Shown: positions 151 to 13,575 of the stretch, piece after piece
Layout: each line of letters opens with the position of its first letter
Numbering within the stretch: the first letter of the stretch is position 1
Assembly: GCA_003447895.1 (NCBI GenBank)
Contig: DLYC01000249.1
Location: forward strand, 7,836 to 22,588
DNA length: 14,753 bases
Direction: 5' to 3'
Source of the DNA: Lachnospiraceae bacterium
GTDB lineage: Bacteria > Bacillota > Clostridia > Lachnospirales > Lachnospiraceae
Made by a program: the position numbers and the translations under genes
The notes under the pieces: model-generated
Database searches by the model: none
What the model was told of the DNA's origin: nothing
The model's input: the letters and a program-made list of their open reading frames with translations, nothing else

Positions 151-205
151 TCATGAAGAAACAGACTATAACGGAGCAAAGAATTAAGACAAGGATGTGA
201 GACAG

Positions 206-1156
206 TTGGACAAGATAGCAGTACTGATTCCGTGTTACAATGAAGAGAAGACGATCCGGAAGGTCGTCACGGACTGGAAGAATTCCCTTCCGGAGGCCGT
301 AATCTATGTGTATGACAACAATTCCAAGGACAACACGGCGAAGATCGCCGCGGAGTGCGGCGCGGTCGTGAGGCACGAGTACCAGCAGGGAAAGGGAAAC
401 GTGATCCGCAGAATGTTCAGGGAGATCGACGCGGAGTGTTATATTATGGTAGACGGCGACGACACTTACCCGGCCGAATACGGAAGGCAGATGGCCGATC
501 TGGTCCTTCATAAGGGCGCGGACATGGTAGTCGGTGACAGGCTGTCCTCCACCTATTTCGAGGAGAACAAGCGCCCCTTCCACAATTTGGGAAACAGTCT
601 TGTGAGAGGGAGCATCAACCGCCTGTTCGGGACCAATATCCGGGATATCATGACCGGCTACAGAGCTTTCAGCTTTCTCTTTGTAAAGAGCTTCCCGGTG
701 CTCTCGAAGGGATTTGAGATCGAGACCGAGATGAGCATCCACGCGGTCGAGAAGAACATGAGAATTGAGAACGTCGTGATCGAGTACCGGGACAGGCCGG
801 AGGGAAGTGAATCCAAACTGAACACCTATTCGGACGGCGCCAAGGTCCTCAATACGATCTTCAGGCTCTATAAGAACTACCGCCCCATGGGCTTTTTCAT
901 GGGACTGGCTGTTTTCCTCTTTATTTTAGCTCTGATCCTGTTTGTGCCGGTCCTGTTTGACTTCGCCAGAACCGGGCAGGTTCCCAGGTTCCCGACCCTG
1001 ATCGTCTCCGGATTTATCGCGCTTGCGGGGATCCTGTCCCTCTACGCGGGGCTCATTCTGAGCACGATCGTGGAGAAAGAGAGGCAGGAGTTTGAGTTCA
1101 GGCTGATCACAACGGATCATATTTATAAAGAACTGATGTGGAAAAAGACAGAATAA
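206..1156 (+). CDS. DPM1-like family 2 glycosyltransferase with two C-terminal membrane helices
   Basis: An inverting GT-A glycosyltransferase, probably moving a sugar from a nucleotide donor to polyprenyl phosphate or a lipid-linked glycan at the inner membrane face. Numbering from TTG 206: the nucleotide-binding start reads VLIPCYNEE (residues 6-14), the metal-binding DGDD is at 83-86, and a MTGYR motif lies in the acceptor region. Two hydrophobic segments follow at about 228-250 and 262-286, then a basic amphipathic tail (VEKERQEFEFRL), the layout of DPM1/GtrB-type enzymes. A longer start, GTG at 197, is possible. I prefer TTG 206 because AAGGATGTGA at 191-200 matches the ideal Shine-Dalgarno at 9 of 10 bases, is correctly spaced for 206, and overlaps the GTG. 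The acceptor and sugar cannot be told from sequence. Confidence 0.88.
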   Translation: MDKIAVLIPCYNEEKTIRKVVTDWKNSLPEAVIYVYDNNSKDNTAKIAAECGAVVRHEYQQGKGNVIRRMFREIDAECYIMVDGDDTYPAEYGRQMADLVLHKGADMVVGDRLSSTYFEENKRPFHNLGNSLVRGSINRLFGTNIRDIMTGYRAFSFLFVKSFPVLSKGFEIETEMSIHAVEKNMRIENVVIEYRDRPEGSESKLNTYSDGAKVLNTIFRLYKNYRPMGFFMGLAVFLFILALILFVPVLFDFARTGQVPRFPTLIVSGFIALAGILSLYAGLILSTIVEKERQEFEFRLITTDHIYKELMWKKTE

Positions 1157-1174
1157 TATATTATAATTAGTCGG

Positions 1175-1205
1175 TTGCGTAACTTTTGCGCTTTTATGAT
1201 ATAAT
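1175..1205 (+). promoter_or_regulatory. Extended -10 sigma-A promoter for the GT4 gene
   Basis: TGATATAAT at 1197-1205 is a perfect TATAAT preceded by the TGn extension. A weak -35 candidate (TTGCGT, 1175-1180) lies 19 bases upstream, longer than ideal, but extended -10 promoters depend less on the -35. Transcription would start near 1212, giving a leader of about 35 bases before GTG 1247. It sits in the AT-rich gap between two GC-rich genes. Confidence 0.65.
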
Positions 1206-1246
1206 AGTTTTGGTTTTTTTAGTTGCATTGACACAGGAGAAGGATA

Positions 1247-2404
1247 GTGGCAAGGAAGATACGTGTTTTACATATCGCGGAAGCGCCCGGAGGTGTGGAG
1301 CGGTACTTGGTCGCGCTATTGACTAAGCTCAAACAGAATTATAGTGATCAGTTGGAGCATATCCTCTTGTGTTCTGATTCTTTTGACGCAGGTAAGTTTA
1401 AGGATATCACTTCCAGGGTCGAGCATGTGCCGGATATGCACCATGCGATCAGCGCAGCCTCCGACTGCAGGAGCGTCATGGCTGTGAGAAGACTCATTGC
1501 CAAATACAAACCCGACGTTGTGTACTGTCACAGTTCCAAGGCGGGCGCGATCGGACGTCTGGCCAACGTGGGCATGAAGAACCGATACGGGAAGAAGAAT
1601 CTGTGCATTTACAATGCGCACGGCTGGGCATTCAACATGAAGGGCGCGACAGGAAATATGATCCGCTCCTATATCATGATCGAGAAGATGCTCGCGCCTA
1701 TGACCGATAAGATCGTCTGCATCTCCGAGTTTGAGAAGAACTCGGCACTGGAGTACGGAATCTGCGCACCCTCGAGACTCAAGGTCATCTACAACGGGAT
1801 CGATCTCGACGAGATGGAGAGGGCGGAGAGCATTCCGCGCAGCGTGCTGAATATCCCCGAGGACGCTTTTGTCGTGGGAATGGTGGGCAGGCTTGCGATG
1901 CAGAAGGCGCCGGATGTATTTGTCCGGGCGGCTTCGGAGATCAAGAGAAAGATTCCCAAGGCGTTCTTTATGATCGTCGGAGACGGCCTGAACCGCGATG
2001 CGACAGAGAAACTGATCGCGGAATGCGGACTTACGGACTCCTTCCTGATCACCGGCTGGGTCTCAGACCCGCTCGACTATATCGGAAACTTTGATGTCGC
2101 AATGCTTCTTAGCAGATGGGAAGGGTTCGGACTTGTCCTTCCGGAATACATGCTGACAAGAAAGCCGATCGTAGCGGCCAGGGTCGACGCGATTCCCGAA
2201 ATCGTCCAGGACGGGGTCAACGGGCTCCTTGTAAACCGCGAGGACTTCCGGGGCGCCGCGCAGGCTGCGGTCAGGATCTATCACGACGAGGAACTTTGCG
2301 GGAGGCTGGTAGAGAACGGCTACAAGATCGTGAGAGAGAGGTTTGATGTAGAGCGCACCGCGCGTGAGCACAGAGATCTGTTCATGGGCATGTCCACTAA
2401 CTGA
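1247..2404 (+). CDS. Family 4 glycosyltransferase (GT-B fold)
   Basis: A retaining cytoplasmic glycosyltransferase of 385 residues, usual for the family, likely extending the lipid-linked repeat unit from a nucleotide-sugar donor. The N-terminal acceptor domain starts with VLHIAEAPGGVERYL, whose GGVER loop is typical of GT4. The C-terminal donor domain has VGMVGRLAMQKAPD, then VGDG, and the EX7E signature EGFGLVLPE at 292-300. The start is GTG 1247 with AGGAGAAGG ending four bases before it. No membrane segment is seen. It has its own extended -10 promoter, and the next gene begins 22 bases after its stop, so the two are probably co-transcribed. Donor and acceptor are unknown. Confidence 0.9.
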   Translation: MARKIRVLHIAEAPGGVERYLVALLTKLKQNYSDQLEHILLCSDSFDAGKFKDITSRVEHVPDMHHAISAASDCRSVMAVRRLIAKYKPDVVYCHSSKAGAIGRLANVGMKNRYGKKNLCIYNAHGWAFNMKGATGNMIRSYIMIEKMLAPMTDKIVCISEFEKNSALEYGICAPSRLKVIYNGIDLDEMERAESIPRSVLNIPEDAFVVGMVGRLAMQKAPDVFVRAASEIKRKIPKAFFMIVGDGLNRDATEKLIAECGLTDSFLITGWVSDPLDYIGNFDVAMLLSRWEGFGLVLPEYMLTRKPIVAARVDAIPEIVQDGVNGLLVNREDFRGAAQAAVRIYHDEELCGRLVENGYKIVRERFDVERTAREHRDLFMGMSTN

Positions 2405-2426
2405 TCGGCCGCACCGGCCTTTATCG

Positions 2427-4802
2427 ATGAATATGAAAGATGCATGCATACTGACGAAATTTTATAAGAATTACAACTATGGCGGAATGCTTCAGGGGTA
2501 CGCCCTTAAAAGGGCGGTCAGAGATCTGGGGTATTCCGTCGATCTCATATCATACGATGTGAACGCAAATCCCAACCCCGTCTATCCGGGGCTTCGGCAG
2601 CAGATCGAGCAGTACGGCCCGTTCTCCGCAGTGGAGAAGGCGGGAGAGAAGGCGGTTGCCAAGGGGAGTTTTCTGATCTCAGACATCCTTGCGCAAAGAA
2701 AAGAACGCTTCGAGGCGTTCATGGAGGAAACACAGCCTTCCGAGAAACTCTATGACGACAAGTCGGCGGAAGAGCTGTGCCGCAGATACCGGGCGCTGAT
2801 CAGCGGCTCAGACCAGGTCTGGAATCCCAACGCGGTCAGGAATCTGTACCTGCAGACATTTGCGGAGGATCCGGCCAGAAAGATCGCCTATGCCGCCAGT
2901 ATAGGGAGAGATTCCTTTTCGGAGAGAGAAGCCTCCGTCCTGATCCCCGCGATCAGGGAATTCGGGTCGATCAGCGTCAGGGAGCGCACAGCGAAGAAGC
3001 TCCTGAAAAGGTATATCGAGGCGCCGATCGAGACTTCGCTCGATCCCACCCTTCTTCTTAGCGCGGAGGAGTGGTCGGAAGTGGCCTCGGATCCGCTCGT
3101 CGAGGGGAAGTATGTTTTGGTGTACTTTTTCTCGGACAGCCTGAACGTGAGAAGAAGAGCCGAACAGCTCTTTGCAAAGCGCGGCATGAAGATGGTCTTT
3201 ATTCCCTATGCCAAGCAGGAGTATAATCTGACAGACGCTTCCGGACCCGGCGAGAGGATGGAGGATGTGGGCCCCAGGGAGTTTGTATCCCTTGTCCAAA
3301 ATGCCTCCTTCGTACTGACGGATTCTTTCCACGGGGCAGTCTTTTCCCTGATCTTTAAGAAGCCCTTCGCGGTATTTGAGAGAAACAGGAACGGGCATGT
3401 GTCCATGAATTCCAGGCTCTACGATCTCTTGAACCTCTTCGATCAGTCCCATCGGCTGGTCAACGCGAAGACGGGCGTCGAGCCGGACTATCTGTTTGAA
3501 GTGGACCGGGAAAAAATAGAGAGCATCTGGGCCTCTGAGAAGAAGCGGTCACTTGAGTATCTCTCCGGAGCGCTTAAGAGAGCCATCCTTGCGGCCGGAC
3601 ACAGTGAGCGCATGGTCACGGTATCCTCCGACGAGGAGCGGTGCACGGGATGCGGCGCCTGCGCGGCGGTGTGTCCCACAGGCTGCATTTCCCTGGAGAG
3701 CAACCGAAACGGATTTATTGTCCCCGTGATCGATGCGGACAAGTGCATCAAGTGCGGGCGGTGCCTTGCGACCTGCCCGGTACAGGGAAAAAGGCCGGAG
3801 ATGTTCACGCCGGTGCGCTGCCTGGGCGCATATGCGATCTACGAGGACAAGGAGAGCGCTTCCGGCGGAATCGGCGGCATACTCTGCCGTCTGTTTGCGG
3901 AAACGGGCGGAGTGGTCTACGGAACAGCCTATACAGAAGGAATGAATGTCTGCGCGGTGAGAGCGGACAGCCCGGAGGAGACAGAGGCCTTCAAGGGCAC
4001 CAAATATGTACAATCCTATATGGGAGATTCCGCGGCCAGGGTGGTCATGGACCTCGCGGCGGGCCGAAAGGTCCTGTTTACGGGAACTCCCTGCCAGATC
4101 GCCGGTGTGCGCGCAGCCGTGAAGACGCGCTGTCCTTCGAAGGCGCAGAACCTGTATACGGCGGAGATCATCTGCCACGGCGTTCCCTCTCCTTTGATGT
4201 TTAAACGCTATCTCAACTGGCTGTGGGAGAAGCACGGACAGAAAGTGGAAGAATACCGTTTCAGGGTCAAGGAGCGGGACACCGATCCGGATTATATGGT
4301 CAGGATCGGCCTTGAGAACGGAAGCAAAGTGATACAGACCGGCTTCAGGGATCCCTATTACAGGCTGTTTCTCTCTTCCAAGTGGTTTCGAAAGAGCTGC
4401 TATGAGTGTCCCTTCGCATCCCAGAAGAGAGCGGCCGATCTTACGATGGGCGATTTCTGGAATGCCGAGATACTCCCCGAGGAGTTCGGGAAGGACAGGA
4501 GAGTTTCCGTGGTCCTGATCAACAACCGGCGCGGGGAGGAACTTCTAAGGCTCATCTTCGGCGAACTGGAAGCCGTGGATATTTCCTGGGAGACGGCCGC
4601 GGAAGGAAACGCGAACCTCCGGCGCCCGACGCCCAAACCCTCCGTGTACACGGAATTTGGGGACGTCAGGGATACGGGTGCTTTCTTCGACCATGAGGCC
4701 ACAGGCAAGGTGAACCGGGGCAAGTACTGGTTCAGCAAACTTACGCCCGGCGTAAGACGCGCGGTCAAAAAAGAGATTCATCTGTGGAGACACAAAGATT
4801 AA
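2427..4802 (+). CDS. Polysaccharide pyruvyltransferase fused to a ferredoxin/FrhB-type redox module
   Basis: A 791-residue fusion. Residues 1 to about 380 are a polysaccharide pyruvyltransferase (CsaB/PssM-like) domain: ILTKFYKNYNYGGMLQGYAL near the start, SGSDQVW at 126-132 and DSFHG at 299-303. Then come two ferredoxin clusters, CTGCGACAAVCP (C406, C409, C412, C416) and CIKCGRCLATCP (C440, C443, C446, C450). The rest is FrhB N- and C-domains: SASGGIGG, GTPCQ (C556), EIICHGVPSP, CYEC (C658, C661) and TMGDFW at 673-678. FrhB relatives are flavin and [4Fe-4S] enzymes moving electrons to or from F420 or other substrates; most Clostridia lack F420, so the acceptor here is probably the glycan or its precursor (inference). 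The frame opens upstream at GTG 2364 inside the GT4 gene, but homology begins at ATG 2427 or 2433. No good ribosome site precedes either, so coupling to the GT4 stop is likely. Confidence 0.88.
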   Translation: MNMKDACILTKFYKNYNYGGMLQGYALKRAVRDLGYSVDLISYDVNANPNPVYPGLRQQIEQYGPFSAVEKAGEKAVAKGSFLISDILAQRKERFEAFMEETQPSEKLYDDKSAEELCRRYRALISGSDQVWNPNAVRNLYLQTFAEDPARKIAYAASIGRDSFSEREASVLIPAIREFGSISVRERTAKKLLKRYIEAPIETSLDPTLLLSAEEWSEVASDPLVEGKYVLVYFFSDSLNVRRRAEQLFAKRGMKMVFIPYAKQEYNLTDASGPGERMEDVGPREFVSLVQNASFVLTDSFHGAVFSLIFKKPFAVFERNRNGHVSMNSRLYDLLNLFDQSHRLVNAKTGVEPDYLFEVDREKIESIWASEKKRSLEYLSGALKRAILAAGHSERMVTVSSDEERCTGCGACAAVCPTGCISLESNRNGFIVPVIDADKCIKCGRCLATCPVQGKRPEMFTPVRCLGAYAIYEDKESASGGIGGILCRLFAETGGVVYGTAYTEGMNVCAVRADSPEETEAFKGTKYVQSYMGDSAARVVMDLAAGRKVLFTGTPCQIAGVRAAVKTRCPSKAQNLYTAEIICHGVPSPLMFKRYLNWLWEKHGQKVEEYRFRVKERDTDPDYMVRIGLENGSKVIQTGFRDPYYRLFLSSKWFRKSCYECPFASQKRAADLTMGDFWNAEILPEEFGKDRRVSVVLINNRRGEELLRLIFGELEAVDISWETAAEGNANLRRPTPKPSVYTEFGDVRDTGAFFDHEATGKVNRGKYWFSKLTPGVRRAVKKEIHLWRHKD

Positions 4803-4860: not shown

Positions 4861-6027
4861 ATGAAAAAAGCAATTGTAATAGGCGGCGGAAACGGAATGG
4901 GTCTTGCGATCTCCCTGGACCTGATCGGAAGGGGCTACATGGTCGCGGTGTTGGATATCAAGGCGCCGGAAGAGGGGGTGCTCCCCGAAGGAAGCTATTC
5001 CTATGAGTATATTGACCTCTACTACCTCGACGAAGAGAGACTGGCGGAGCTGGCAAAAGACGAGGACCTGGAGGTCCTTATGATCACAGCCGGCATCGGC
5101 CGGGTGGCGGAGTTTGAACTCTTTAAGACTTATGAGATCGAAAAGATCATGACGATCAATGCGACATCGACGATCAAGATCCTCCGCCTGTTCTACGACA
5201 GGATCAATAGCGACCGGGACTTCTATGCGGGCGTCATGGGATCGATCTCGGGCTGGATGTCCTCGCCGATGACGGCGGTATACGCCTCCTCCAAGGCGGC
5301 AGTCTGCAGGCTGATCGAGAGCGTCAACATTGAGTTGGAAGTGGCGGGACGGGCAAACCGGATCCTCAACGTATCCCCGGCCTCCTTCAAAGGCTCCAGG
5401 TTCTACGGCGGACCCAACAATATGGACCTGCTCTCAGGACCTGCCGGCGAGATCACGGACCGCCTCTTTGAGAGGGAAACCCTCTATATTCCGCAGTACG
5501 AGGAGACTTTCAAGGGAGTTCTTGAGAGATACCACAGAGACCCGCACGAATACGGCCTTCACAGCTATCAGTACAAGAAGGACTCCGGGCGCGCCGCGGA
5601 CAAGAGCCGCATGCGCGTGGGATACCTGTCGGGAACCTTTGATCTCTTCCACGTGGGGCATCTCAATCTTTTGAAACGGGCCAAGGAAAAATGCGATTAT
5701 CTGATCGTCGGCGTACACAACAACGGAAAGTGGAAGGGCAAAGAGACCTTTATCCCGCTCGACCAGAGAAAGCAGATCGTGGCGGCCTGCAAATATGTGG
5801 ACCGGGTCGTGGATTCCTGCCCGGAAGACGCGGACGCGTGGGACCTGTGGCATTACGACAGACTTTTCGTCGGATCCGACTACAAGGGGACCGAGCGCTT
5901 TAACCGCTATGAGGAGTACTTCAAGGACAAGGGAGTGGAGATCATCTACTTCCCTTACACGAAGAGCACCAGCAGCACGGCGATCCGAAAAGCGATCCAC
6001 GAGAGCGCCAAGAGGGAAGAGCAGTAA
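4861..6027 (+). CDS. Fused short-chain dehydrogenase and TagD-like cytidylyltransferase
   Basis: A bifunctional 388-residue protein. Residues 1 to about 235 are a short-chain dehydrogenase/reductase: the NAD(P)-binding turn GGGNGMG at 8-14, and a full catalytic set N100, S128, Y141 and K145 (YASSK). From about 251 a cytidylyltransferase of the glycerol-3-phosphate type follows: GTFDLFHVGH with HVGH at 264-267, a QRKQIV segment, VGSDYKG, and KSTSSTAIR near the C-terminus, matching the RTSGISTT-like motif of TagD. A reductase coupled to a CTP-using transferase suggests that a keto- or aldose-phosphate is reduced to a polyol phosphate and activated as a CDP-polyol, as separate enzymes do for CDP-ribitol, CDP-arabinitol or CDP-mannitol. 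The polyol cannot be named. The start is ATG 4861 after AGGTG. The next gene, though behind a new promoter, is a CDP-alcohol transferase. Confidence 0.87.
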   Translation: MKKAIVIGGGNGMGLAISLDLIGRGYMVAVLDIKAPEEGVLPEGSYSYEYIDLYYLDEERLAELAKDEDLEVLMITAGIGRVAEFELFKTYEIEKIMTINATSTIKILRLFYDRINSDRDFYAGVMGSISGWMSSPMTAVYASSKAAVCRLIESVNIELEVAGRANRILNVSPASFKGSRFYGGPNNMDLLSGPAGEITDRLFERETLYIPQYEETFKGVLERYHRDPHEYGLHSYQYKKDSGRAADKSRMRVGYLSGTFDLFHVGHLNLLKRAKEKCDYLIVGVHNNGKWKGKETFIPLDQRKQIVAACKYVDRVVDSCPEDADAWDLWHYDRLFVGSDYKGTERFNRYEEYFKDKGVEIIYFPYTKSTSSTAIRKAIHESAKREEQ

Positions 6028-6250: not shown

Positions 6251-6985
6251 ATGATTACCTACAAAGATGTTGCGGAAAAATCAATGACTTCGGACAAAAA
6301 GGCATCGGCTCAGTCGGATCTGTTTGCTTTCTATGTGATCAGACCGATTTCTTTTTTTGTGACGATCCCGTTTTTGCATACGAGCCTCACACCGAATATG
6401 ATCTCGGTGATCTCCATCATACCGGTCATGATCGGCTTTGTGCTCTCGTGGTACACCTACTCGAAGACCGGGATGCTGGTCAGCTGGCTGATGTTCTTTA
6501 TCTGGGATATTCTGGACAGTGTGGACGGCAATGTGGCAAGGTACAGAAGGCAGCTTTCAAGGCTCGGGAGCGTGTATGACGCGATGAGCGGATACCTGGA
6601 GGCCTCCTTCGTATTCTTCTCAGCCGCCATCATGGCGGCCCACAGCAGCGGCCCTCTGGTCCGCGCGGGAATGCTTACGGCTGAGCGTCTTGTGATCTTT
6701 GGCGGGATCACGGCCGTGATGAACATGTATCCCCGTCTCGTTATGCATAAGACAGTCACCACGCTTATGGATAAGGGACAGGTGAAGGAGATCAGCGAGA
6801 AGAAGGAATACGGGATCGTGAAGATCGTTGCGCTCAATCTCAAGTCCTGCGCGGGCGGGGCTCTGGTTCTGATGCTTCTGGCGATCCTCTTTAATCTTCT
6901 GGATCTCTATACGGTGTTCTATCTGGTCTTCAACCTGGCGGTAGCGGTCGCGACGATCGTCTCTATCTTAAGAAAGAACGCCTGA
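6251..6985 (+). CDS. CDP-alcohol phosphatidyltransferase-like membrane protein
   Basis: A 244-residue integral membrane protein of the CDP-alcohol phosphotransferase superfamily, which moves a phospho-alcohol from a CDP-alcohol to an acceptor hydroxyl with loss of CMP. The signature lies at D89, D92, G93, A96, R97, G106 and D110, in the pattern DxxDGxxAR(x8)GxxxDxxx. The fourth aspartate, expected at 114, is glycine (DAMSG). Several hydrophobic segments flank it, around 25-45, 50-85, 115-135 and 195-240, and TPNMIS at 47-52 is the usual entry helix sequence. The upstream SDR-cytidylyltransferase could supply its CDP-alcohol, so its product may be a polyol-phosphate-decorated lipid or glycan rather than a housekeeping phospholipid (inference). 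The missing acid residue casts doubt on normal catalysis. Confidence 0.82.
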   Translation: MITYKDVAEKSMTSDKKASAQSDLFAFYVIRPISFFVTIPFLHTSLTPNMISVISIIPVMIGFVLSWYTYSKTGMLVSWLMFFIWDILDSVDGNVARYRRQLSRLGSVYDAMSGYLEASFVFFSAAIMAAHSSGPLVRAGMLTAERLVIFGGITAVMNMYPRLVMHKTVTTLMDKGQVKEISEKKEYGIVKIVALNLKSCAGGALVLMLLAILFNLLDLYTVFYLVFNLAVAVATIVSILRKNA

Positions 6986-7103: not shown

Positions 7104-7144
7104 ATGTGTCGTTTTTGGGAAAGAAGCGCTTCGCGGGCAGGTGC

Positions 7145-7173
7145 GGAAAGCGGACCGCGAATGTCCGCTTTCC
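7145..7173 (+). other. Perfect 11-bp hairpin in the leader of the Stealth gene
   Basis: GGAAAGCGGAC (7145-7155) and GTCCGCTTTCC (7163-7173) are exact inverse complements around a 7-base loop. No T-run follows on either strand, so it is not a simple terminator. It lies about 35 bases before the start codon of the Stealth protein, between two genes presumed co-transcribed, so it could affect mRNA stability or expression of the downstream gene. Confidence 0.75.
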
Positions 7174-7208
7174 TGTATGCGCTAAAAAAACAGAGGGAGA
7201 GAGCAGCT

Positions 7209-8255
7209 ATGTCTAAAAAGGCGGGAGCCGGTTATCCGATCGACTTTGTGATGCTGTGGGTCGATGACACTGACCCGGAATGGAGAAAAGAGAGAAACCG
7301 TTACTCGGGAAAAGACGAGGCCATGGTGGACAACCGGGAGGCCAGATACAGAGACTGGGATACGCTCAAATACTGGTTTCGCGGCGTGGAGAAATTTGCG
7401 CCCTGGGTCCACAGGATCTATTTTGTGACCTGCGGACACCTGCCGGAGTGGCTCAATGTGGAGGCGGACAAGCTGGTCCATATTAAGCACTCGGACTACA
7501 TCCCCGGGGAGTATCTTCCGACGTTCAGCTCCCACACGATCGAGCTCAATCTGAACCGGATTCCGGAGCTGGCTGAGCACTTTGTCTATTTTAACGACGA
7601 CACGTTCATCCTAAAGCCCATTACGGAAGATCTGTTCTACCGCGGAGGAAAGCCCGTGCACCAGGCAAGGCTTCACGCGATCCGTGCGGGAAAAATGGGT
7701 GAAATGATGCCGCACATCTATCTCAATACGACGGAAGTCATCAACGAGCATTTCGACATGCATAAGGTGCTCAAGAAGGACGCTGCCAAATGGTTCTCGG
7801 TCTCAAAGAACGGGCCGGGCGTCGTATTTGAGAACCGCTTCTGCAGCCGATACGATATGTTCCCCGGGTTTGGCAATGAGCATCTTCCCACGCCGATCCT
7901 TAAGAGCACGATGGACACGATCTGGAACCTCGAAGGAAAGAGGCTGGACGAGACCTGCAGGCACAGGTTCCGGGATGTGAGGGACGTCAGCCAGTATGTA
8001 TTCCGTTACTGGCAGCTTGCGAGCGGGAACTTTGTCCCGGAGAAGCTGTCCAATATCGGTGTCAAATACACGATCAAGTCAGACAGGGAATATGTAAAGA
8101 AGGTGTGCGAAGTTGTGAAGTCGGGAAAGCACAAGCTGGTCTGTCTCAACGACGCGGACGCCCTTGATTCGCAGGAGGATTTTCTCTGGGCCAAAAAAGA
8201 GCTGGTCAGGGCATTTGAAGTGCTCCTTCCGGAGAAATCGTCATTTGAAAAGTAA
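7209..8255 (+). CDS. Stealth-type capsular polysaccharide phosphotransferase
   Basis: A 348-residue cytoplasmic enzyme of the Stealth family, whose characterised members transfer hexose-1-phosphate from a nucleotide sugar to build phosphodiester-linked capsules. Conserved blocks are visible in order: CR1, IDFVMLWVDDTDPEW (11-25); CR2, beginning RYRDWDTLKYWFRGVEKFAP and ending FVYFNDDTFILKP from 125; CR3, with NGPGVVFENRF and NEHLPTPI; and CR4, RFRDVRDVSQYVFRYW. ATG 7209 is chosen over an upstream in-frame start at 7104 because GGGAGA sits eight bases before it and CR1 starts eleven residues in. The longer frame would run through the leader hairpins. The family predicts a sugar-phosphate backbone or side group in the polymer, consistent with the CDP-alcohol genes nearby. 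Confidence 0.9.
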   Translation: MSKKAGAGYPIDFVMLWVDDTDPEWRKERNRYSGKDEAMVDNREARYRDWDTLKYWFRGVEKFAPWVHRIYFVTCGHLPEWLNVEADKLVHIKHSDYIPGEYLPTFSSHTIELNLNRIPELAEHFVYFNDDTFILKPITEDLFYRGGKPVHQARLHAIRAGKMGEMMPHIYLNTTEVINEHFDMHKVLKKDAAKWFSVSKNGPGVVFENRFCSRYDMFPGFGNEHLPTPILKSTMDTIWNLEGKRLDETCRHRFRDVRDVSQYVFRYWQLASGNFVPEKLSNIGVKYTIKSDREYVKKVCEVVKSGKHKLVCLNDADALDSQEDFLWAKKELVRAFEVLLPEKSSFEK

Positions 8256-8336: not shown

Positions 8337-9440
8337 ATGAGCAGTTCAATCGGAATCTTAACCTATCACAGAGCAGCGAACTACGGAGCTGTCCTTCAGG
8401 CCTATGCGCTTCAGACGGCGTTTTCCAAACTCGGCCGCAGGACGGAGATCCTTGACTACTACTGCCCGGCCGTCGAAGAGGACCACAGGCCTTTCGGAAG
8501 ACTCGGGAAGAAAAAGAACGTTTTCCAGACGCTCACGCACTCGCCTGTCAAGATCAAAAAGGACAAGGTCTTCGGCGCGTTCCGCGAGAGAAAGCTGAAG
8601 CTGAGCGAGCCGATGAAAAAGGGCATTGCGCCCGGCACCGCGGACCGCTACGACCTCTTTGTGACAGGCTCCGACCAGGTCTGGAACGACAGGCTCTCCG
8701 GAATGGACCCCGCCTATATGCTGGACTTCGCGCGGGAGGAGCAGCGGTATTCCTATGCCTGCAGCTTCGGCTTCGACACATTTCCGGAAGGGAAAGAGGC
8801 GTTATACACAGAGCGGCTCAAAGGCCTCCGCTGCGTCTCCCTGAGGGAGAAGAGCGGCGTGAAGATGCTGGAAGAAGCGGGGATCTCCGCCAGAGTCGAC
8901 CTGGACCCGACACTTCTTCTTACGGCGAAGGAGTGGAGCCCTTTCAGCGTAAAGCCCAAGGACACAGAGCCCTATATCCTCCTCTATACGGTCAACGGCG
9001 CAGTGCACCTTCTGGATTTTGCAAGGGAATTGTCTGAGAAGACGGGGTGCCGGATCCTCTATCTCAACAATCAGTACAAGACAAACCGAGACCTTACCCG
9101 CATTCGTTACGCCGCGCCGGAGGAGTTTACGGGGTGGTTTGAGAATGCTGCGTATGTCCTCACCAATTCTTTCCACGGAACCGTTTTCTCGATCCTGTTC
9201 CACAAACAATTCAAGATCGAGCTGGAGACGGTGAAGTCCTTCAATGTCAGGAGCAGGGATCTACTCACAAGCTGCGGACTGGAGGACTGCATCCTTCGAA
9301 ACGGGCCGGAGGACTTTACGTTCCGGCAGGATTTTGAGGAGCCGGACCGGCTTCTTTCACAGATGAGAGAGCGGTCTTTCTCTTATCTTCAGAGCATCTG
9401 CGACAGCGCGGAGAAGATGGGAAAGACTAAAGACAGGTAA
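8337..9440 (+). CDS. Stand-alone polysaccharide pyruvyltransferase family protein
   Basis: A 367-residue cytoplasmic protein of the CsaB/PssM-type family, which uses phosphoenolpyruvate to place pyruvyl ketals on sugar units, giving the polymer negative charge. It opens with IGILTYHRAANYGAVLQAYA, typical of the family, then has TGSDQVWND from 110, LDPTLLL, and NSFHG at 277-281 with the expected histidine at 280. Unlike the paralogue at 2427-4802 it has no ferredoxin or FrhB extension. The start is ATG 8337 with AAGGGAAG six bases or so upstream. The stop at 9440 lies four bases from the next start, so the two are tightly coupled. Some members of this family are not pyruvyltransferases, so the exact reaction is unproven. 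Confidence 0.88.
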   Translation: MSSSIGILTYHRAANYGAVLQAYALQTAFSKLGRRTEILDYYCPAVEEDHRPFGRLGKKKNVFQTLTHSPVKIKKDKVFGAFRERKLKLSEPMKKGIAPGTADRYDLFVTGSDQVWNDRLSGMDPAYMLDFAREEQRYSYACSFGFDTFPEGKEALYTERLKGLRCVSLREKSGVKMLEEAGISARVDLDPTLLLTAKEWSPFSVKPKDTEPYILLYTVNGAVHLLDFARELSEKTGCRILYLNNQYKTNRDLTRIRYAAPEEFTGWFENAAYVLTNSFHGTVFSILFHKQFKIELETVKSFNVRSRDLLTSCGLEDCILRNGPEDFTFRQDFEEPDRLLSQMRERSFSYLQSICDSAEKMGKTKDR

Positions 9441-9444
9441 AGCT

Positions 9445-10824
9445 ATGAGAATACGATCCTACGACATTCAGCATATAGGGTGCATACTTTTTCTGGTCTA
9501 TATCTTTCTGTACGACCTGTCCAATGCCCTGCTGGGGAACTGGGTCTCGCTGATCGTCGTCATACTGGCGGAGGCGCTGTGTTTTGCCTCGATCCAGAAG
9601 GGCGAACAACGGTACAAGGTGCCCAAGATCTATTTGAAAAAGATCCTTCCCTGGCTCTTTTTTGCCCTGCTGTTTGTCATACCGAGAAACCAGCTGGCAG
9701 CGCGGAACATCTACTTTTCGACGATCCGATGGCTGATGGCTGTTCTTTTGATGTGCATGATCGCGTACAAGAATGAGGAATACGAGCACATCACGCGGAG
9801 CATCTGCGTCATCGGGTTCCTCCATGTGCTTGCAACCTGGGTCCTGTACTTTGTCCCCTCTCTGTACAAGGGGCTCTACAAGATCTGGGGAGAGTGGCCG
9901 GTCGGGACGGCGAAGGGACAGCTTGTCTACAAGGCGGGGCTGACAGGCCATTATTCCAGAAGCGCGATCGCCCTGATCTCAGTCCTTCTGATCCTGACAG
10001 CGGCCGTGACCGTCTACCTGCAGAAAAAGGAGATGGCCACGCGCTTTACGTTTACAAGGACCGCGGTGACCGCGGCGCTCTTTGTCCTCACTCTGGGGGC
10101 TCTGTTTCTGACGGCGAAGAGATCGGCCCTTCTGTTCGGCCTCGGCGCCATGGTGCTCGGCTATGTGGCCTACGGAAATAAAAAGAACAGTTTCCTGAGA
10201 CTGGTGGTGATCATGGCCGCGATGCTGGCCGCAGTGCTGATCCTGTCGAGGTTTCTTGCGCCTGTCAGGATCGTCATTGACCGCTTCCTGGAGCTGGGAT
10301 CCGACAGTTCCACGATCAACCGCCTGAAGATGTGGCGGATCGCGCTGGAACTGTTTGCGGAGCACCCGGTCATCGGAATCGGGTGGGAAGGATTTAAATA
10401 CCAGTACTATCTCAAGATCGGCGCGCAGTCTGCGGGAGCCTATGACTTTCTGGACGCGCACAATGTGTACCTGCAGGTCCTCGCGGAGACGGGGATCACG
10501 GGCTTTGCCCTGTACTGCTTCTGCGTGTTCTCCACCTTTATGACGACGCTGAAGCTCCTCAAGGCGAAGGACCGGATCGCGCGCGACGCGGACAAGATCG
10601 CGGTCCTGTACGCGTTTATGTACCAGGTATACTATATTTTGTACTGCGTTACGGGCAACTGCCTGTATGACATCACGTTCGTACACTACGCCATCGCGAA
10701 CGGCCTGGTCTACGGCGTCTACACGAAGACGGTCATGGCCGGGAAGACCGATCCTTACCGGGTGAAAGCCGCCGCGTTCCAAAATGCGATGAAAACAAAT
10801 TCGATCAAAATAAATGCGATGTAA
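9445..10824 (+). CDS. O-antigen ligase/Wzy-like polymerase membrane protein
   Basis: A 459-residue polytopic membrane protein with about ten hydrophobic segments. Its main signature is the large loop before the C-terminal helices, PVIGIGWEGF followed by DAHNVYLQVLAETGITG (from 337, with H339), which is the Wzy_C/O-antigen ligase motif region. A further conserved-looking feature is the basic TAKRSALLFG segment. Next to a Wzx-type flippase it is most likely the polymerase that joins lipid-linked repeat units outside the membrane. A ligase role is possible but less likely in a Gram-positive organism. The start is ATG 9445, and the weak ribosome site AGG at 9435-9437 overlaps the end of the preceding gene. 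Confidence 0.85.
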   Translation: MRIRSYDIQHIGCILFLVYIFLYDLSNALLGNWVSLIVVILAEALCFASIQKGEQRYKVPKIYLKKILPWLFFALLFVIPRNQLAARNIYFSTIRWLMAVLLMCMIAYKNEEYEHITRSICVIGFLHVLATWVLYFVPSLYKGLYKIWGEWPVGTAKGQLVYKAGLTGHYSRSAIALISVLLILTAAVTVYLQKKEMATRFTFTRTAVTAALFVLTLGALFLTAKRSALLFGLGAMVLGYVAYGNKKNSFLRLVVIMAAMLAAVLILSRFLAPVRIVIDRFLELGSDSSTINRLKMWRIALELFAEHPVIGIGWEGFKYQYYLKIGAQSAGAYDFLDAHNVYLQVLAETGITGFALYCFCVFSTFMTTLKLLKAKDRIARDADKIAVLYAFMYQVYYILYCVTGNCLYDITFVHYAIANGLVYGVYTKTVMAGKTDPYRVKAAAFQNAMKTNSIKINAM

Positions 10825-10842: not shown

Positions 10843-13575
10843 ATGAGCCGAGAGGGAAAACTTGCCAAAAATACACTCATATTATCTATAGGAACCTTTT
10901 TGCCAAGATTTGCGTCATTTATCACGCTGCCGATCCTGACGGGATGCCTCACCAAGGCGGAAATGGGAACCTACGACCTGATCACGATCCTGGAGTCTCT
11001 CTTTCTTCCGACGGCGACGCTCCAGATCCAGGCGGCGGCTTTCCGCTTTCTGATCGACGCGAGAGAAGACGCGAAGAAAGTCCGGGAGATCATCACCAAT
11101 ATCGCGCTGTTTATCATCCCGGTCTCCCTGGCGTCCCTCACGATCCTGTACTTTTGTCTGTACATGGCGGATGGGCCGATCAGGATCCTGATCTGTCTCT
11201 ATTTTATGTTTGACATCCTCTCGAGCGCGGAGAGGCAGGTCTGCAGGGGACTTACCCGCAACCTGTATTATTCGATCAGCGCGATCATCTCTTCTCTGGG
11301 AAAGATGATCTTTATCGTGATCTGTGTCTACTGGCTGAAGACCGGACTTCTGGGAACGGTCGTCGCGCTCTTTGTGGCGTCCCTGTTTTCTTTTCTTTAT
11401 CTGTTCTTCTTTGGCGGAATCTATAAGTACATCGATCCGAAGTGCTTCAACAGGGAGCTTCTCGGGGAGATGCTCCGGTATTCCTGGCCCATGGTGCCGA
11501 ACAGCATGTCGGCCTGGGTCATGAGGGTCTCAGACCGTATCGTGGTCACCGCCTTTATGGGCGTTGCGGCCAACGCGGTCTATGCGGTGGCCAATAAGAT
11601 CCCGAGCCTTCTCAATATCGCGCAGGCGACATTTACCATGGCCTGGCAGGAGAACGCGTCTGTGGTCTCCAAAGACCGGGACGCGAGTGAGTACTATTCC
11701 TCCATGTTCAGGGTCATGTTTGACCTGATGGCCGGTTTCTTCGGCCTTCTGATCGCGGCAACCCCGATCCTGTTCAGACTCCTGATCCGGGGCGACTACG
11801 CGGAGGCCTACAACCAGATTCCCATCCTGTTTGTCGCCATGTTCTTCTTCAGCATGTCGACCTTTCTGGGCGGGATCTATGTGGCCTACAAGAGGTCAAA
11901 GAGTGTCGGCATCACGACAATGGCCGCCGCGGCCTGCAACCTGATCGTCGACCTTGCCCTCATAAGGTTCATCGGGCTCTATGCCGCTTCCGGCTCCACC
12001 CTGGTCAGCTATCTCTTCCTTTTTGTCTACCGCTGCATCGATGTACAGCGCATCGTCCGGGTCAGGTACAGCGTCCGCCATATCGTCATGATGCTGGCGA
12101 TCATGGTGACGGAGAGTGTCCTGTGCTTTAAGCAGAAGCCGGTCCTGAACGTGATCAATCTGCTGATCAGTGTTGTCGTCTTTTTTGTCTTTAATAAGAC
12201 TTTTGTGCTCGCTGTGGTCAAAAAAGGGAAGGCGGTTATGAGAAAGTTCCTCAAGAAAAATAAGGCGAAAAGTGCCGGGCAGGCAGACAATACAAAGGCT
12301 GCGCAGACGGCTCCTCATGAAAGCGGCGCGCCAAAAGAGACAGACGAAAACGGAGTTCCCCTGCTCGCGGAAGACCGGAGCAGCTGCTGCGGATGCTCCG
12401 CCTGTTACACCGCATGTCCCGTGGGCGCCATCACAATGAAACCCGACGAGGAGGGCTTCCTCTATCCGGAGATCGACCCGGAGACCTGCATTCACTGCCG
12501 CAGGTGCCTGAAAGTCTGCGCGTTTAAGAGAGACCGCGCGGCGCAGAGCGCGCCGAAGGCGGAGACCGGCAGCGGGCAGAAAGCGGGCGAGAGCGTTCAG
12601 GCAAAGCCCGAGAGCGCGCAGAAGGCGGAGGGCAGGCTTCCCGGGACGCTTGCCTACGCCTGCAGGGCAAAAGACAGAGAGATCCTTAACACCAGCTCGT
12701 CGGGAGGCCTGTTCACCGTCCTCTCAGACCAATTCCTTTCCAAGGGAGACGCTGTCCTGTGCTCTTTTTATGACTATGAGGAGCACTGCGCCCGCTTCCG
12801 CCTGATTCGTTCAGTCGGGGAGCGCGACGAGTCCCGCGGCTCCATGTATATGCAGAGCTATGCGCGCGATTCCTGGAAAGAGGCGCTTACCTGGCTAAAG
12901 GACAATCCGGACAGGAAACTCCTCTACACGGGTCTTGGCTGCCAGGCGGCCGCCTTTATGGAATTTGCCCGCCTGAGCGGTGTCCGGGACAGAGTGGCTG
13001 TGGTCGACATTATCTGCCACGGCGCGCCGAGCCCCCTGATCTGGAAGGAATACGCGCAGTCTCTCGAAAAAGGAGGGAAGCTGAGCGGCCTCAATTTCAG
13101 GGACAAGAAGACCGGCTGGTCCCGCTCAAGGGGAATCGTCTTCATTGACGGCAAAGAGACCTCGATCCGGCAGTACCGGAAGATCTACTCCGACCGATAT
13201 ACGATCCGGCAGTCCTGCTCCTCCTGCCCCTACACGAGAGTGGACAGGGAGACGGACATGACGATCGGCGATTTCTGGAACATGGAGAAATCCATGCCCG
13301 ACTTCGTGGACGAGATGGGAACTTCCCTGGCCCTTGTCCACACCGAAAAGGGACGGGAACTGTTCGAGAGTATCCGGGGCGTCCTCGATGTGCGGGAGAG
13401 CAACACCAGGGACTGCCTTCAGATGAACCTTCAGCGGCCCACAGAGCACTCGGAGCACAGAGACCGGTTCTGGGCGGATTACCGCAGGGAAGGCATTGAA
13501 TACGTGATGAAGAAATACGGAGAGGTCACGCTGGCGGGCCGGGTCAAAAGACGGATCAAAAAGATATTGGGATAA
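10843..13575 (+). CDS. Wzx-type flippase fused to a ferredoxin/FrhB-type redox module
   Basis: A 910-residue fusion. Residues 1 to about 465 are a polysaccharide flippase (MOP superfamily) with a dozen or so hydrophobic segments and the N-terminal GKLAKNTLILSIGTFLPRFA typical of Wzx relatives. A basic linker follows, then two ferredoxin clusters, CCGCSACYTACP (C515, C518, C521, C525) and CIHCRRCLKVC (C549, C552, C555, C559). A 40-residue Ala/Lys/Glu-rich linker leads to an FrhB module: SSSGGLF, GLGCQ (C700), DIICHGAPSP, CSSC (C792, C795) and MTIGDFW. The redox part would sit on the cytoplasmic side, beside lipid-linked glycan awaiting export. The frame is uninterrupted, so this is not a frameshift artefact within this sequence. 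ATG 10843 follows GGGGAG. A good internal start exists at 12238. The substrate of the redox half is unknown. Confidence 0.88.
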   Translation: MSREGKLAKNTLILSIGTFLPRFASFITLPILTGCLTKAEMGTYDLITILESLFLPTATLQIQAAAFRFLIDAREDAKKVREIITNIALFIIPVSLASLTILYFCLYMADGPIRILICLYFMFDILSSAERQVCRGLTRNLYYSISAIISSLGKMIFIVICVYWLKTGLLGTVVALFVASLFSFLYLFFFGGIYKYIDPKCFNRELLGEMLRYSWPMVPNSMSAWVMRVSDRIVVTAFMGVAANAVYAVANKIPSLLNIAQATFTMAWQENASVVSKDRDASEYYSSMFRVMFDLMAGFFGLLIAATPILFRLLIRGDYAEAYNQIPILFVAMFFFSMSTFLGGIYVAYKRSKSVGITTMAAAACNLIVDLALIRFIGLYAASGSTLVSYLFLFVYRCIDVQRIVRVRYSVRHIVMMLAIMVTESVLCFKQKPVLNVINLLISVVVFFVFNKTFVLAVVKKGKAVMRKFLKKNKAKSAGQADNTKAAQTAPHESGAPKETDENGVPLLAEDRSSCCGCSACYTACPVGAITMKPDEEGFLYPEIDPETCIHCRRCLKVCAFKRDRAAQSAPKAETGSGQKAGESVQAKPESAQKAEGRLPGTLAYACRAKDREILNTSSSGGLFTVLSDQFLSKGDAVLCSFYDYEEHCARFRLIRSVGERDESRGSMYMQSYARDSWKEALTWLKDNPDRKLLYTGLGCQAAAFMEFARLSGVRDRVAVVDIICHGAPSPLIWKEYAQSLEKGGKLSGLNFRDKKTGWSRSRGIVFIDGKETSIRQYRKIYSDRYTIRQSCSSCPYTRVDRETDMTIGDFWNMEKSMPDFVDEMGTSLALVHTEKGRELFESIRGVLDVRESNTRDCLQMNLQRPTEHSEHRDRFWADYRREGIEYVMKKYGEVTLAGRVKRRIKKILG
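12224..12240 (+). promoter_or_regulatory. Possible internal ribosome binding site and in-frame start at the flippase/FrhB junction
   Basis: AAGGGAAGG (12224-12232) lies five bases before an in-frame ATG at 12238 (codon 466), exactly where the last membrane helix ends and the redox half begins. Initiation there would give a separate soluble Fe-S/FrhB protein of 445 residues alongside the fusion. The purine-rich run also encodes Lys-Gly-Lys, so it may be chance. Confidence 0.35.
12545..12630 (+). repeat. In-frame direct repeat encoding the inter-domain linker
   Basis: A 20-base element at 12545-12564 recurs at 12611-12630 with one mismatch, offset by 66 bases (22 codons). The copies encode QSAPKAE and ESAQKAE within an Ala/Lys/Glu/Gln-rich spacer between the ferredoxin and FrhB parts of the flippase fusion. 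Linker expansion by duplication is a reasonable explanation. Confidence 0.75.

What the first reader, a model, noticed from the sequence alone, without database searches (positions are those of the whole stretch)
10843..13575. Polysaccharide flippase fused in one frame to a ferredoxin/FrhB redox module
Seen directly: a Wzx-like membrane half (1-465), eight ferredoxin cysteines (C515-C559), and an FrhB-like half with GLGCQ, CSSC and MTIGDFW motifs, all without a frame break. Flippases normally stand alone. Covalently tethering a flavin/Fe-S enzyme to the exporter suggests that a lipid-linked glycan is reduced, or checked for reduction, immediately before or during flipping. I know of no characterised protein with this layout.
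Basis: partly seen in the sequence, partly recalled or inferred. Interest (0 to 1): 0.78.

Follow-up and report, generated by a model that had tools for sequence, protein, structure and literature searches.

The report
Sugar-exporter protein carrying a built-in reductase
A protein that moves sugar building blocks across the membrane of an anaerobic bacterium is joined to an iron-sulphur/flavin reductase, and comparison with relatives suggests that the reductase finishes a lactic-acid decoration on the sugar before export, which can be tested directly.

Summary
In detail: window 10843-13575 is one 910-aa frame, a PF01943 flippase, a 2[4Fe-4S] ferredoxin and FrhB. Eleven other full-length fusions, 54-83% identical, exclude an artefact. 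It is one state of a fluid gene string, PF04230 'pyruvyl transferase' - flippase - ferredoxin - FrhB; the ferredoxin sits on the flippase, on FrhB, on PF04230 or alone. The fused state changed at least four times in the tree.

FrhB's main partner is PF04230, not the flippase: 23 of 27 FrhB genes in the window's order lie within 10 kb of PF04230, against 0 of 31 printed control flippases; 63 of 85 fused FrhB proteins carry PF04230.

Best explanation: PF04230 transfers enolpyruvyl from PEP to a sugar, and ferredoxin-FrhB reduces it to a lactyl ether, as MurA/MurB do. Support: the pair lies in an E. coli O58-annotated O-antigen cluster (O58's lactyl-rhamnose is recalled). Klebsiella K22/K37 make a lactyl ether and hold an unexplained pyruvyltransferase, though probably without FrhB. 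The chemistry is inferred; coupling to flipping is plausible and untested.

The parts
10843..13575 (+). 910-aa fusion: PF01943 flippase + 2[4Fe-4S] ferredoxin + FrhB (PF04422/PF04432)
10843..12237 (+). flippase half, about residues 1-465; hydrophobic stretches within 11-462
12385..12519 (+). ferredoxin cysteines C515-C559, two CX2CX2CX3C motifs
12652..13572 (+). FrhB half, residues 604-910, with C700, C725, C792, C795 invariant in 38 of 38 aligned proteins
2364..4802 (+). second FrhB module: PF04230 + ferredoxin + FrhB in one 812-aa frame
8337..9440 (+). free-standing PF04230 protein, putative enolpyruvyl donor enzyme paired with the flippase-FrhB fusion
9445..10824 (+). Wzy_C (PF04932) O-antigen ligase/polymerase-like protein
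197..2404 (+). two glycosyltransferases (GT2 197-1156; GT4 type 1247-2404) of the same glycan locus

Best explanation
The protein is a Wzx-type flippase whose cytoplasmic tail is a ferredoxin-FrhB reductase, in a cell-surface glycan locus. Shown here: the domains, their recurrence, the gene string PF04230 - flippase - ferredoxin - FrhB, and the tight link of FrhB to PF04230. Inferred: PF04230 transfers an enolpyruvyl group from PEP to a sugar hydroxyl of the lipid-linked unit; ferredoxin-FrhB (a flavin and three 4Fe-4S clusters) reduces the C=C to a 1-carboxyethyl (lactyl) ether; the fusion keeps the reductase at the flippase so that the finished unit is exported. The electron donor is not known. 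The window has two such pairs, so two lactyl groups are possible.
For: Gene string and roaming ferredoxin. FrhB near PF04230: 23 of 27 in 116 genomes of the window's order, 0 of 31 printed control flippases, about 1% by position alone. Of 85 fused FrhB proteins 63 carry PF04230. Same neighbours in the 4 of 6 plasmid records opened. E. coli: pair inside the O-antigen cluster annotated O58, and in a second cluster type. Fold of an Fe-S flavin reductase, HCAR among the matches. PEP-binding Arg and His kept in 21 of 21 window-like partners (residue roles from PMC10435577 passages). Klebsiella K22/K37: lactyl ether (cited title) with a pyruvyltransferase gene though not pyruvylated (PMC4616057 passages).
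Against: No glycan structure is known for this organism. O58's lactyl-rhamnose is recalled and was not found in the library. K22 and K37 have near-identical clusters, while only one F420-hydrogenase gene was counted among 79, so those two types probably use another reductase. The E. coli FrhB and PF04230 proteins are remote from the window's: FrhB 21-24% identical, no BLAST match between the PF04230 proteins. 4 of 27 FrhB genes lack a PF04230 nearby, 7 of 40 loci likewise, and only 4 of 17 Gammaproteobacterial genomes with FrhB have it adjacent. 14 of 34 loci without FrhB also have PF04230.
Confidence: 0.5

Rival explanations
1. FrhB acts on another group of the same glycan, for example a keto or unsaturated sugar or the lipid carrier, and travels with PF04230 because both modify the same unit.
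For: FrhB is also fused to GtrA-like, GT2, hexapeptide and other domains without PF04230 in 9 of 85 proteins, 2 more having no other domain. Two FrhB genes without PF04230 nearby stand beside cytidylyltransferase-like genes and a flippase (L103, L104).
Against: PF04230 is by far the commonest partner, by fusion (63 of 85) and by neighbourhood (23 of 27).
Confidence: 0.3
2. The fusion is passive: neighbouring genes lost a stop codon, and flipping and reduction are not coupled.
For: The fused state changes at least four times in the tree; in L003-L005 and L022 the split genes are already in the same frame; other members fuse FrhB to PF04230 and leave the flippase free (L025, L027).
Against: Nine loci put the only nearby ferredoxin on the flippase, beside a FrhB that needs one; a flippase of another subfamily is fused in the same order. 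This rival concerns the coupling only and is compatible with the chemistry proposed.
Confidence: 0.45
3. FrhB uses coenzyme F420, as the family name says.
For: Best fold matches are F420-reducing enzymes. 34 of 116 genomes of the order have a PF01996 match.
Against: The own genome has no PF01996 match, but it is 71.6% complete and PF01996 alone is a poor marker of F420 synthesis. HCAR, of the same fold, does not use F420 (recalled).
Confidence: 0.1
4. Assembly or sequencing artefact.
For: The source genome is fragmented: 301 contigs, 71.6% complete.
Against: Eleven other full-length fusions at 54-83% identity.
Confidence: 0.01

Closest known systems
FrhB/FdhB family (F420-reducing hydrogenase beta subunit, F420 sulfite reductase N-part, 8riu_B)
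   Different: Fused to a flippase, in a glycan locus; F420 use not shown
HCAR, plant 7-hydroxymethyl chlorophyll a reductase (5dqr)
   Different: Substrate; 17% identity
MurA/MurB
   Same: Proposed logic: enolpyruvyl transfer from PEP, then flavin-dependent reduction to a lactyl ether (recalled)
   Different: PF04230 and FrhB are other families; analogy only
CsaB/WcaK ketal pyruvyltransferases (PF04230)
   Same: Family; PEP-binding Arg and His conserved
   Different: CsaB R207-type Arg missing in 21 of 21 window-like partners, but also in the 14 relatives without FrhB
Glucolactilic-acid genes of Shigella boydii type 17 (Senchenkova 2006)
   Same: Two genes for a lactyl-ether sugar in an O-antigen cluster (title only, seen in PMC5643014)
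   Different: What those two genes are was not seen; the chemistry proposed here may already be in print there

Membership tests
MOP/Wzx flippase (PF01943) | Profile match | tested here: met
   87.2 bits, cut-off 28.2
MOP/Wzx flippase (PF01943) | 12-14 membrane helices | tested here: inconclusive
   Hydrophobic stretches within 11-462 by a simple hydropathy scan; helices not resolved
MOP/Wzx flippase (PF01943) | Flips a lipid-linked sugar | not testable with these tools
   -
2[4Fe-4S] ferredoxin | Two CX2CX2CX3C motifs | tested here: met
   C515-C525 and C549-C559; all eight invariant in 17 aligned relatives
FrhB/FdhB | Profiles PF04422 and PF04432 | tested here: met
   24.3 (cut-off 22) and 66.3 (23.3) bits
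FrhB/FdhB | Fold | tested here: met
FrhB/FdhB | Flavin bound and F420 used | tested here: inconclusive
   Flavin not tested; PF01996 absent from an incomplete genome
Ketal pyruvyltransferase (CsaB), for partner 8337-9440 | PF04230 and PEP-binding Arg/His | tested here: met
   108.9 bits, cut-off 25.3; R170 and H280 aligned to CsaB R148/H308 by motif and spacing
Ketal pyruvyltransferase (CsaB), for partner 8337-9440 | Loop Arg (CsaB R207), needed for activity in CsaB | tested here: not met
   V219 in the window protein; Arg in 10 of 10 CsaB-like and in WcaK; loop alignment is uncertain
Lactyl-ether module | Lactyl ether in the glycan | not testable with these tools
   Structure of this glycan unknown
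MurA/MurB | Homology to MurA or MurB | not tested
   Filed as an analogy only

The most novel reading that the evidence does not exclude
Reduction of an enolpyruvyl to a lactyl ether licenses export: the flippase is itself the electron-transfer subunit of the reductase, by fusion or by its ferredoxin tail, so that only finished lipid-linked units are flipped. PF04230-FrhB would be a second, MurAB-independent route to lactyl ethers, present in Bacillota, Bacteroidota and Gammaproteobacteria.
Probability: 0.2. Interest if true: 0.8.

Novelty: new variant of a known kind. Interest (0 to 1): 0.6.

Why it matters
If true, it gives a function to genes called 'coenzyme F420 hydrogenase beta subunit' in bacterial polysaccharide loci, explains pyruvyltransferase genes in unpyruvylated capsules, and offers a flippase physically tied to the enzyme that finishes its cargo, a handle on how export is coupled to completion of the glycan unit.

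Tried and rejected
Artefact: rejected by 11 other fusions. F420 enzyme: PF01996 absent from the own genome but a poor marker; left open. Loss of the R207-type Arg as a mark of FrhB pairing: window-like PF04230 proteins lack it with FrhB (0 Arg of 21, two of them gaps) and without (0 of 14, three gaps); among ten other FrhB neighbours, mostly WcaK-like, one has it; not used as proof. My first count put three proteins from loci without FrhB (L039, L041, L068) among the partners; corrected. Pvg1p as fold neighbour of the PF04230 model: not among the 50 rows shown, which are GT-B epimerases and glycosyltransferases. PDB sequence search with that protein: one chance row. L118 DNA against E. coli: no match. 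Gammaproteobacterial FrhB: 17 of 370 genomes over cut-off, PF04230 adjacent in 4 of the 17; one other (L117) stands beside a gene that looks like a phytoene desaturase by eye.

Papers: three searches for FrhB or coenzyme F420 hydrogenase, pyruvyl transferase, flippase or carboxyethyl gave none, none, one (PMC4616057, passages read), three (of which only PMC4616057 was read, in passages). No claim is made beyond these searches. The O58 structure was not found and is recalled; Butyrivibrio 1-carboxyethyl sugars are recalled too.

One of them (G028:C21) lies 7.9 kb from a FrhB and 12.8 kb from a PF04230, just outside the 10 kb limit. Of 28 non-own FrhB matches one (G100) was under cut-off and dropped. 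The profiles are my own, built from these same loci; the pyruvyl profile was contaminated by ferredoxin and rebuilt. Frames cut by contig ends were left out. L006 (two flippase frames) and L075 (none) were left out of the tree.

Full report

IT IS REAL AND RECURS. The protein search lists 79 proteins: 12 full-length fusions, this one included (P0002-P0013), the others 54-83% identical. Of the next 52 rows (P0014-P0065), which match the flippase half, 43 carry a precomputed ferredoxin Pfam. In P0066, P0068 and P0070 an acyltransferase PF01757 follows the flippase, and in the last two a ferredoxin follows that. A search with the redox half adds P0081, a PF01943-FrhB fusion whose flippase half has no significant BLASTP match to this one while the redox half is 35% identical: a separate fusion.

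THE GENE STRING. 73 loci from named records were fetched. With my own profiles, 40 of 74 stretches (window included) have FrhB; 33 of these 40 also have PF04230 in the stretch held; of the 34 without FrhB, 14 have PF04230. The joints fall anywhere: flippase-ferredoxin | FrhB, flippase | ferredoxin-FrhB, flippase | ferredoxin | FrhB, PF04230-ferredoxin-FrhB | flippase, PF04230-ferredoxin | FrhB. Of 75 FrhB frames, 42 carry the ferredoxin themselves, 27 have it in another frame within 2.5 kb (9 of them at the flippase's C-terminus) and 6 have none found. A flippase that bears the ferredoxin beside a FrhB that lacks one is thus a repeated state and argues for contact between the two (inference). 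A tree of 90 flippases needs 4 gains or losses of the fused state, and well-supported branches force all 4. In L003-L005 and L022 the split genes are in the same frame; in the other five split loci they are not. The fusion is a gene-fusion clue to association, not a unique invention.

THE MAIN PARTNER IS PF04230. The tool does not name the genomes of the window's order; from the nearest named loci it is probably Lachnospirales (inference). In 116 such genomes, 23 of 27 non-own FrhB matches over cut-off lie within 10 kb of a PF04230 match; position alone would give about 1%; of 31 printed control flippases none does, though one misses by 2.8 kb. Of 85 proteins of about 500-1592 aa with a FrhB domain, 63 also have PF04230, 11 the flippase, 9 another domain (GtrA three times, GT2, hexapeptide, CotH, nitroreductase and others; names recalled from accessions) and 2 no other; free-standing FrhB falls outside that size range. 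The 4 plasmid records opened, of 6 found, show the same neighbours in Ruminococcus, Pseudobutyrivibrio and Bacteroides. The window holds a second module, PF04230-ferredoxin-FrhB, at 2364-4802; the own genome, as held, has no FrhB match beyond these two.

WHAT THE PAIR MAY DO. In the E. coli collection 8 of 5426 genomes match the pair by DNA: 7 at 99% identity or more (in one, strain C9, an insertion sequence lies within the match) and one at 68% over 22% of the query. Three were opened. Two of the seven have the pair between galF and gnd with wecB and rml genes. The divergent one has wzx and wzy annotated as O58 family, both flagged frameshifted, with rml and GDP-mannose genes and an acetyltransferase. 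I recall that E. coli O58, like Shigella dysenteriae type 5, has 3-O-[(R)-1-carboxyethyl]-L-rhamnose; the library did not confirm it. In Klebsiella, PMC4616057 (passages) reports pyruvyltransferase genes in four types without pyruvylation, K8, K22, K37 and K66, and counts nitroreductase 2 and coenzyme F420 hydrogenase 1 among 79 clusters. K22 contains 4-O-[(S)-1-carboxyethyl]-D-glucuronic acid (title of a cited reference), and K37 differs only by an acetyl group (PMC3857182, passages). As K22 and K37 have near-identical clusters, the single F420 gene is probably in neither, so another flavoenzyme, perhaps the nitroreductase, may do the reduction there (inference). The reading: a PF04230 enzyme can deliver an enolpyruvyl group that a flavoenzyme, FrhB here, reduces to a lactyl ether. 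I also recall 1-carboxyethyl galactose and rhamnose in Butyrivibrio exopolysaccharide.

THE PF04230 ACTIVE SITE. Set against ten CsaB-like proteins, the 21 window-like proteins from loci with FrhB keep the Arg and His that bind PEP in CsaB (R148, H308; PMC10435577, passages) in 21 of 21 cases. CsaB R207, whose change to Asp inactivates the enzyme, is Arg in 10 of 10 CsaB-like proteins and in WcaK but in 0 of 21 of these and in 1 of 10 other FrhB neighbours, O58 included among the nine without. The 14 relatives from loci without FrhB lack it too, so this fits altered chemistry but does not prove it. P. alvei CsaB itself was not aligned; numbering was mapped by motif and spacing.

HOW IT LIKELY WORKS. 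PF04230 and ferredoxin-FrhB act in turn on the cytoplasmic face on a lipid-linked sugar, the attached flippase then moves it, and the Wzy-type protein (9445-10824) polymerises it. Shown: domains, order, linkage. Inferred: substrate, direction, donor, coupling.

LIMITS. The genome is incomplete, my profiles come from the same loci, near copies inflate some counts, the E. coli proteins are remote relatives, and the link to lactyl ethers rests on one recalled structure and one cited title. The 2006 Shigella boydii 17 paper (title only) may already describe the same chemistry.

Noticed in passing
window 2364-4802: Second redox fusion in the same locus: PF04230 + ferredoxin + FrhB in one 812-aa frame.
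   Followed up: yes
window 4861-6027, 6251-6985, 7104-8255: Short-chain dehydrogenase fused to a cytidylyltransferase, then a CDP-alcohol phosphotransferase and a Stealth protein: perhaps a CDP-polyol branch of the same glycan.
   Followed up: no
window 197-1156: GT2 protein that scores 210.7 bits with the archaeal AglJ model TIGR04182, under its cut-off of 325.
   Followed up: no
L026:8874-11621; P0068, P0070: Flippase - acyltransferase (PF01757) - ferredoxin in one chain; in L026 a FrhB gene follows.
   Followed up: partly
P0152; L085:1677-3425: FrhB joined to a nitroreductase domain in P0152 (PF00881) and, by eye only, in L085; another flavoenzyme pairing.
   Followed up: no
L103, L104: FrhB genes without PF04230 in the stretch, beside frames that look like cytidylyltransferases and a flippase.
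   Followed up: partly
L140:7312-19763: E. coli O-antigen cluster with wecB, rml, PF04230 and FrhB; the pair is in 7 of 5426 genomes at 99% or more; serogroup not identified.
   Followed up: partly
116 genomes of the window's order: PF01996, named F420_ligase, matches in 34 of 116 genomes, mostly frames near 400 aa, of unknown role.
   Followed up: no
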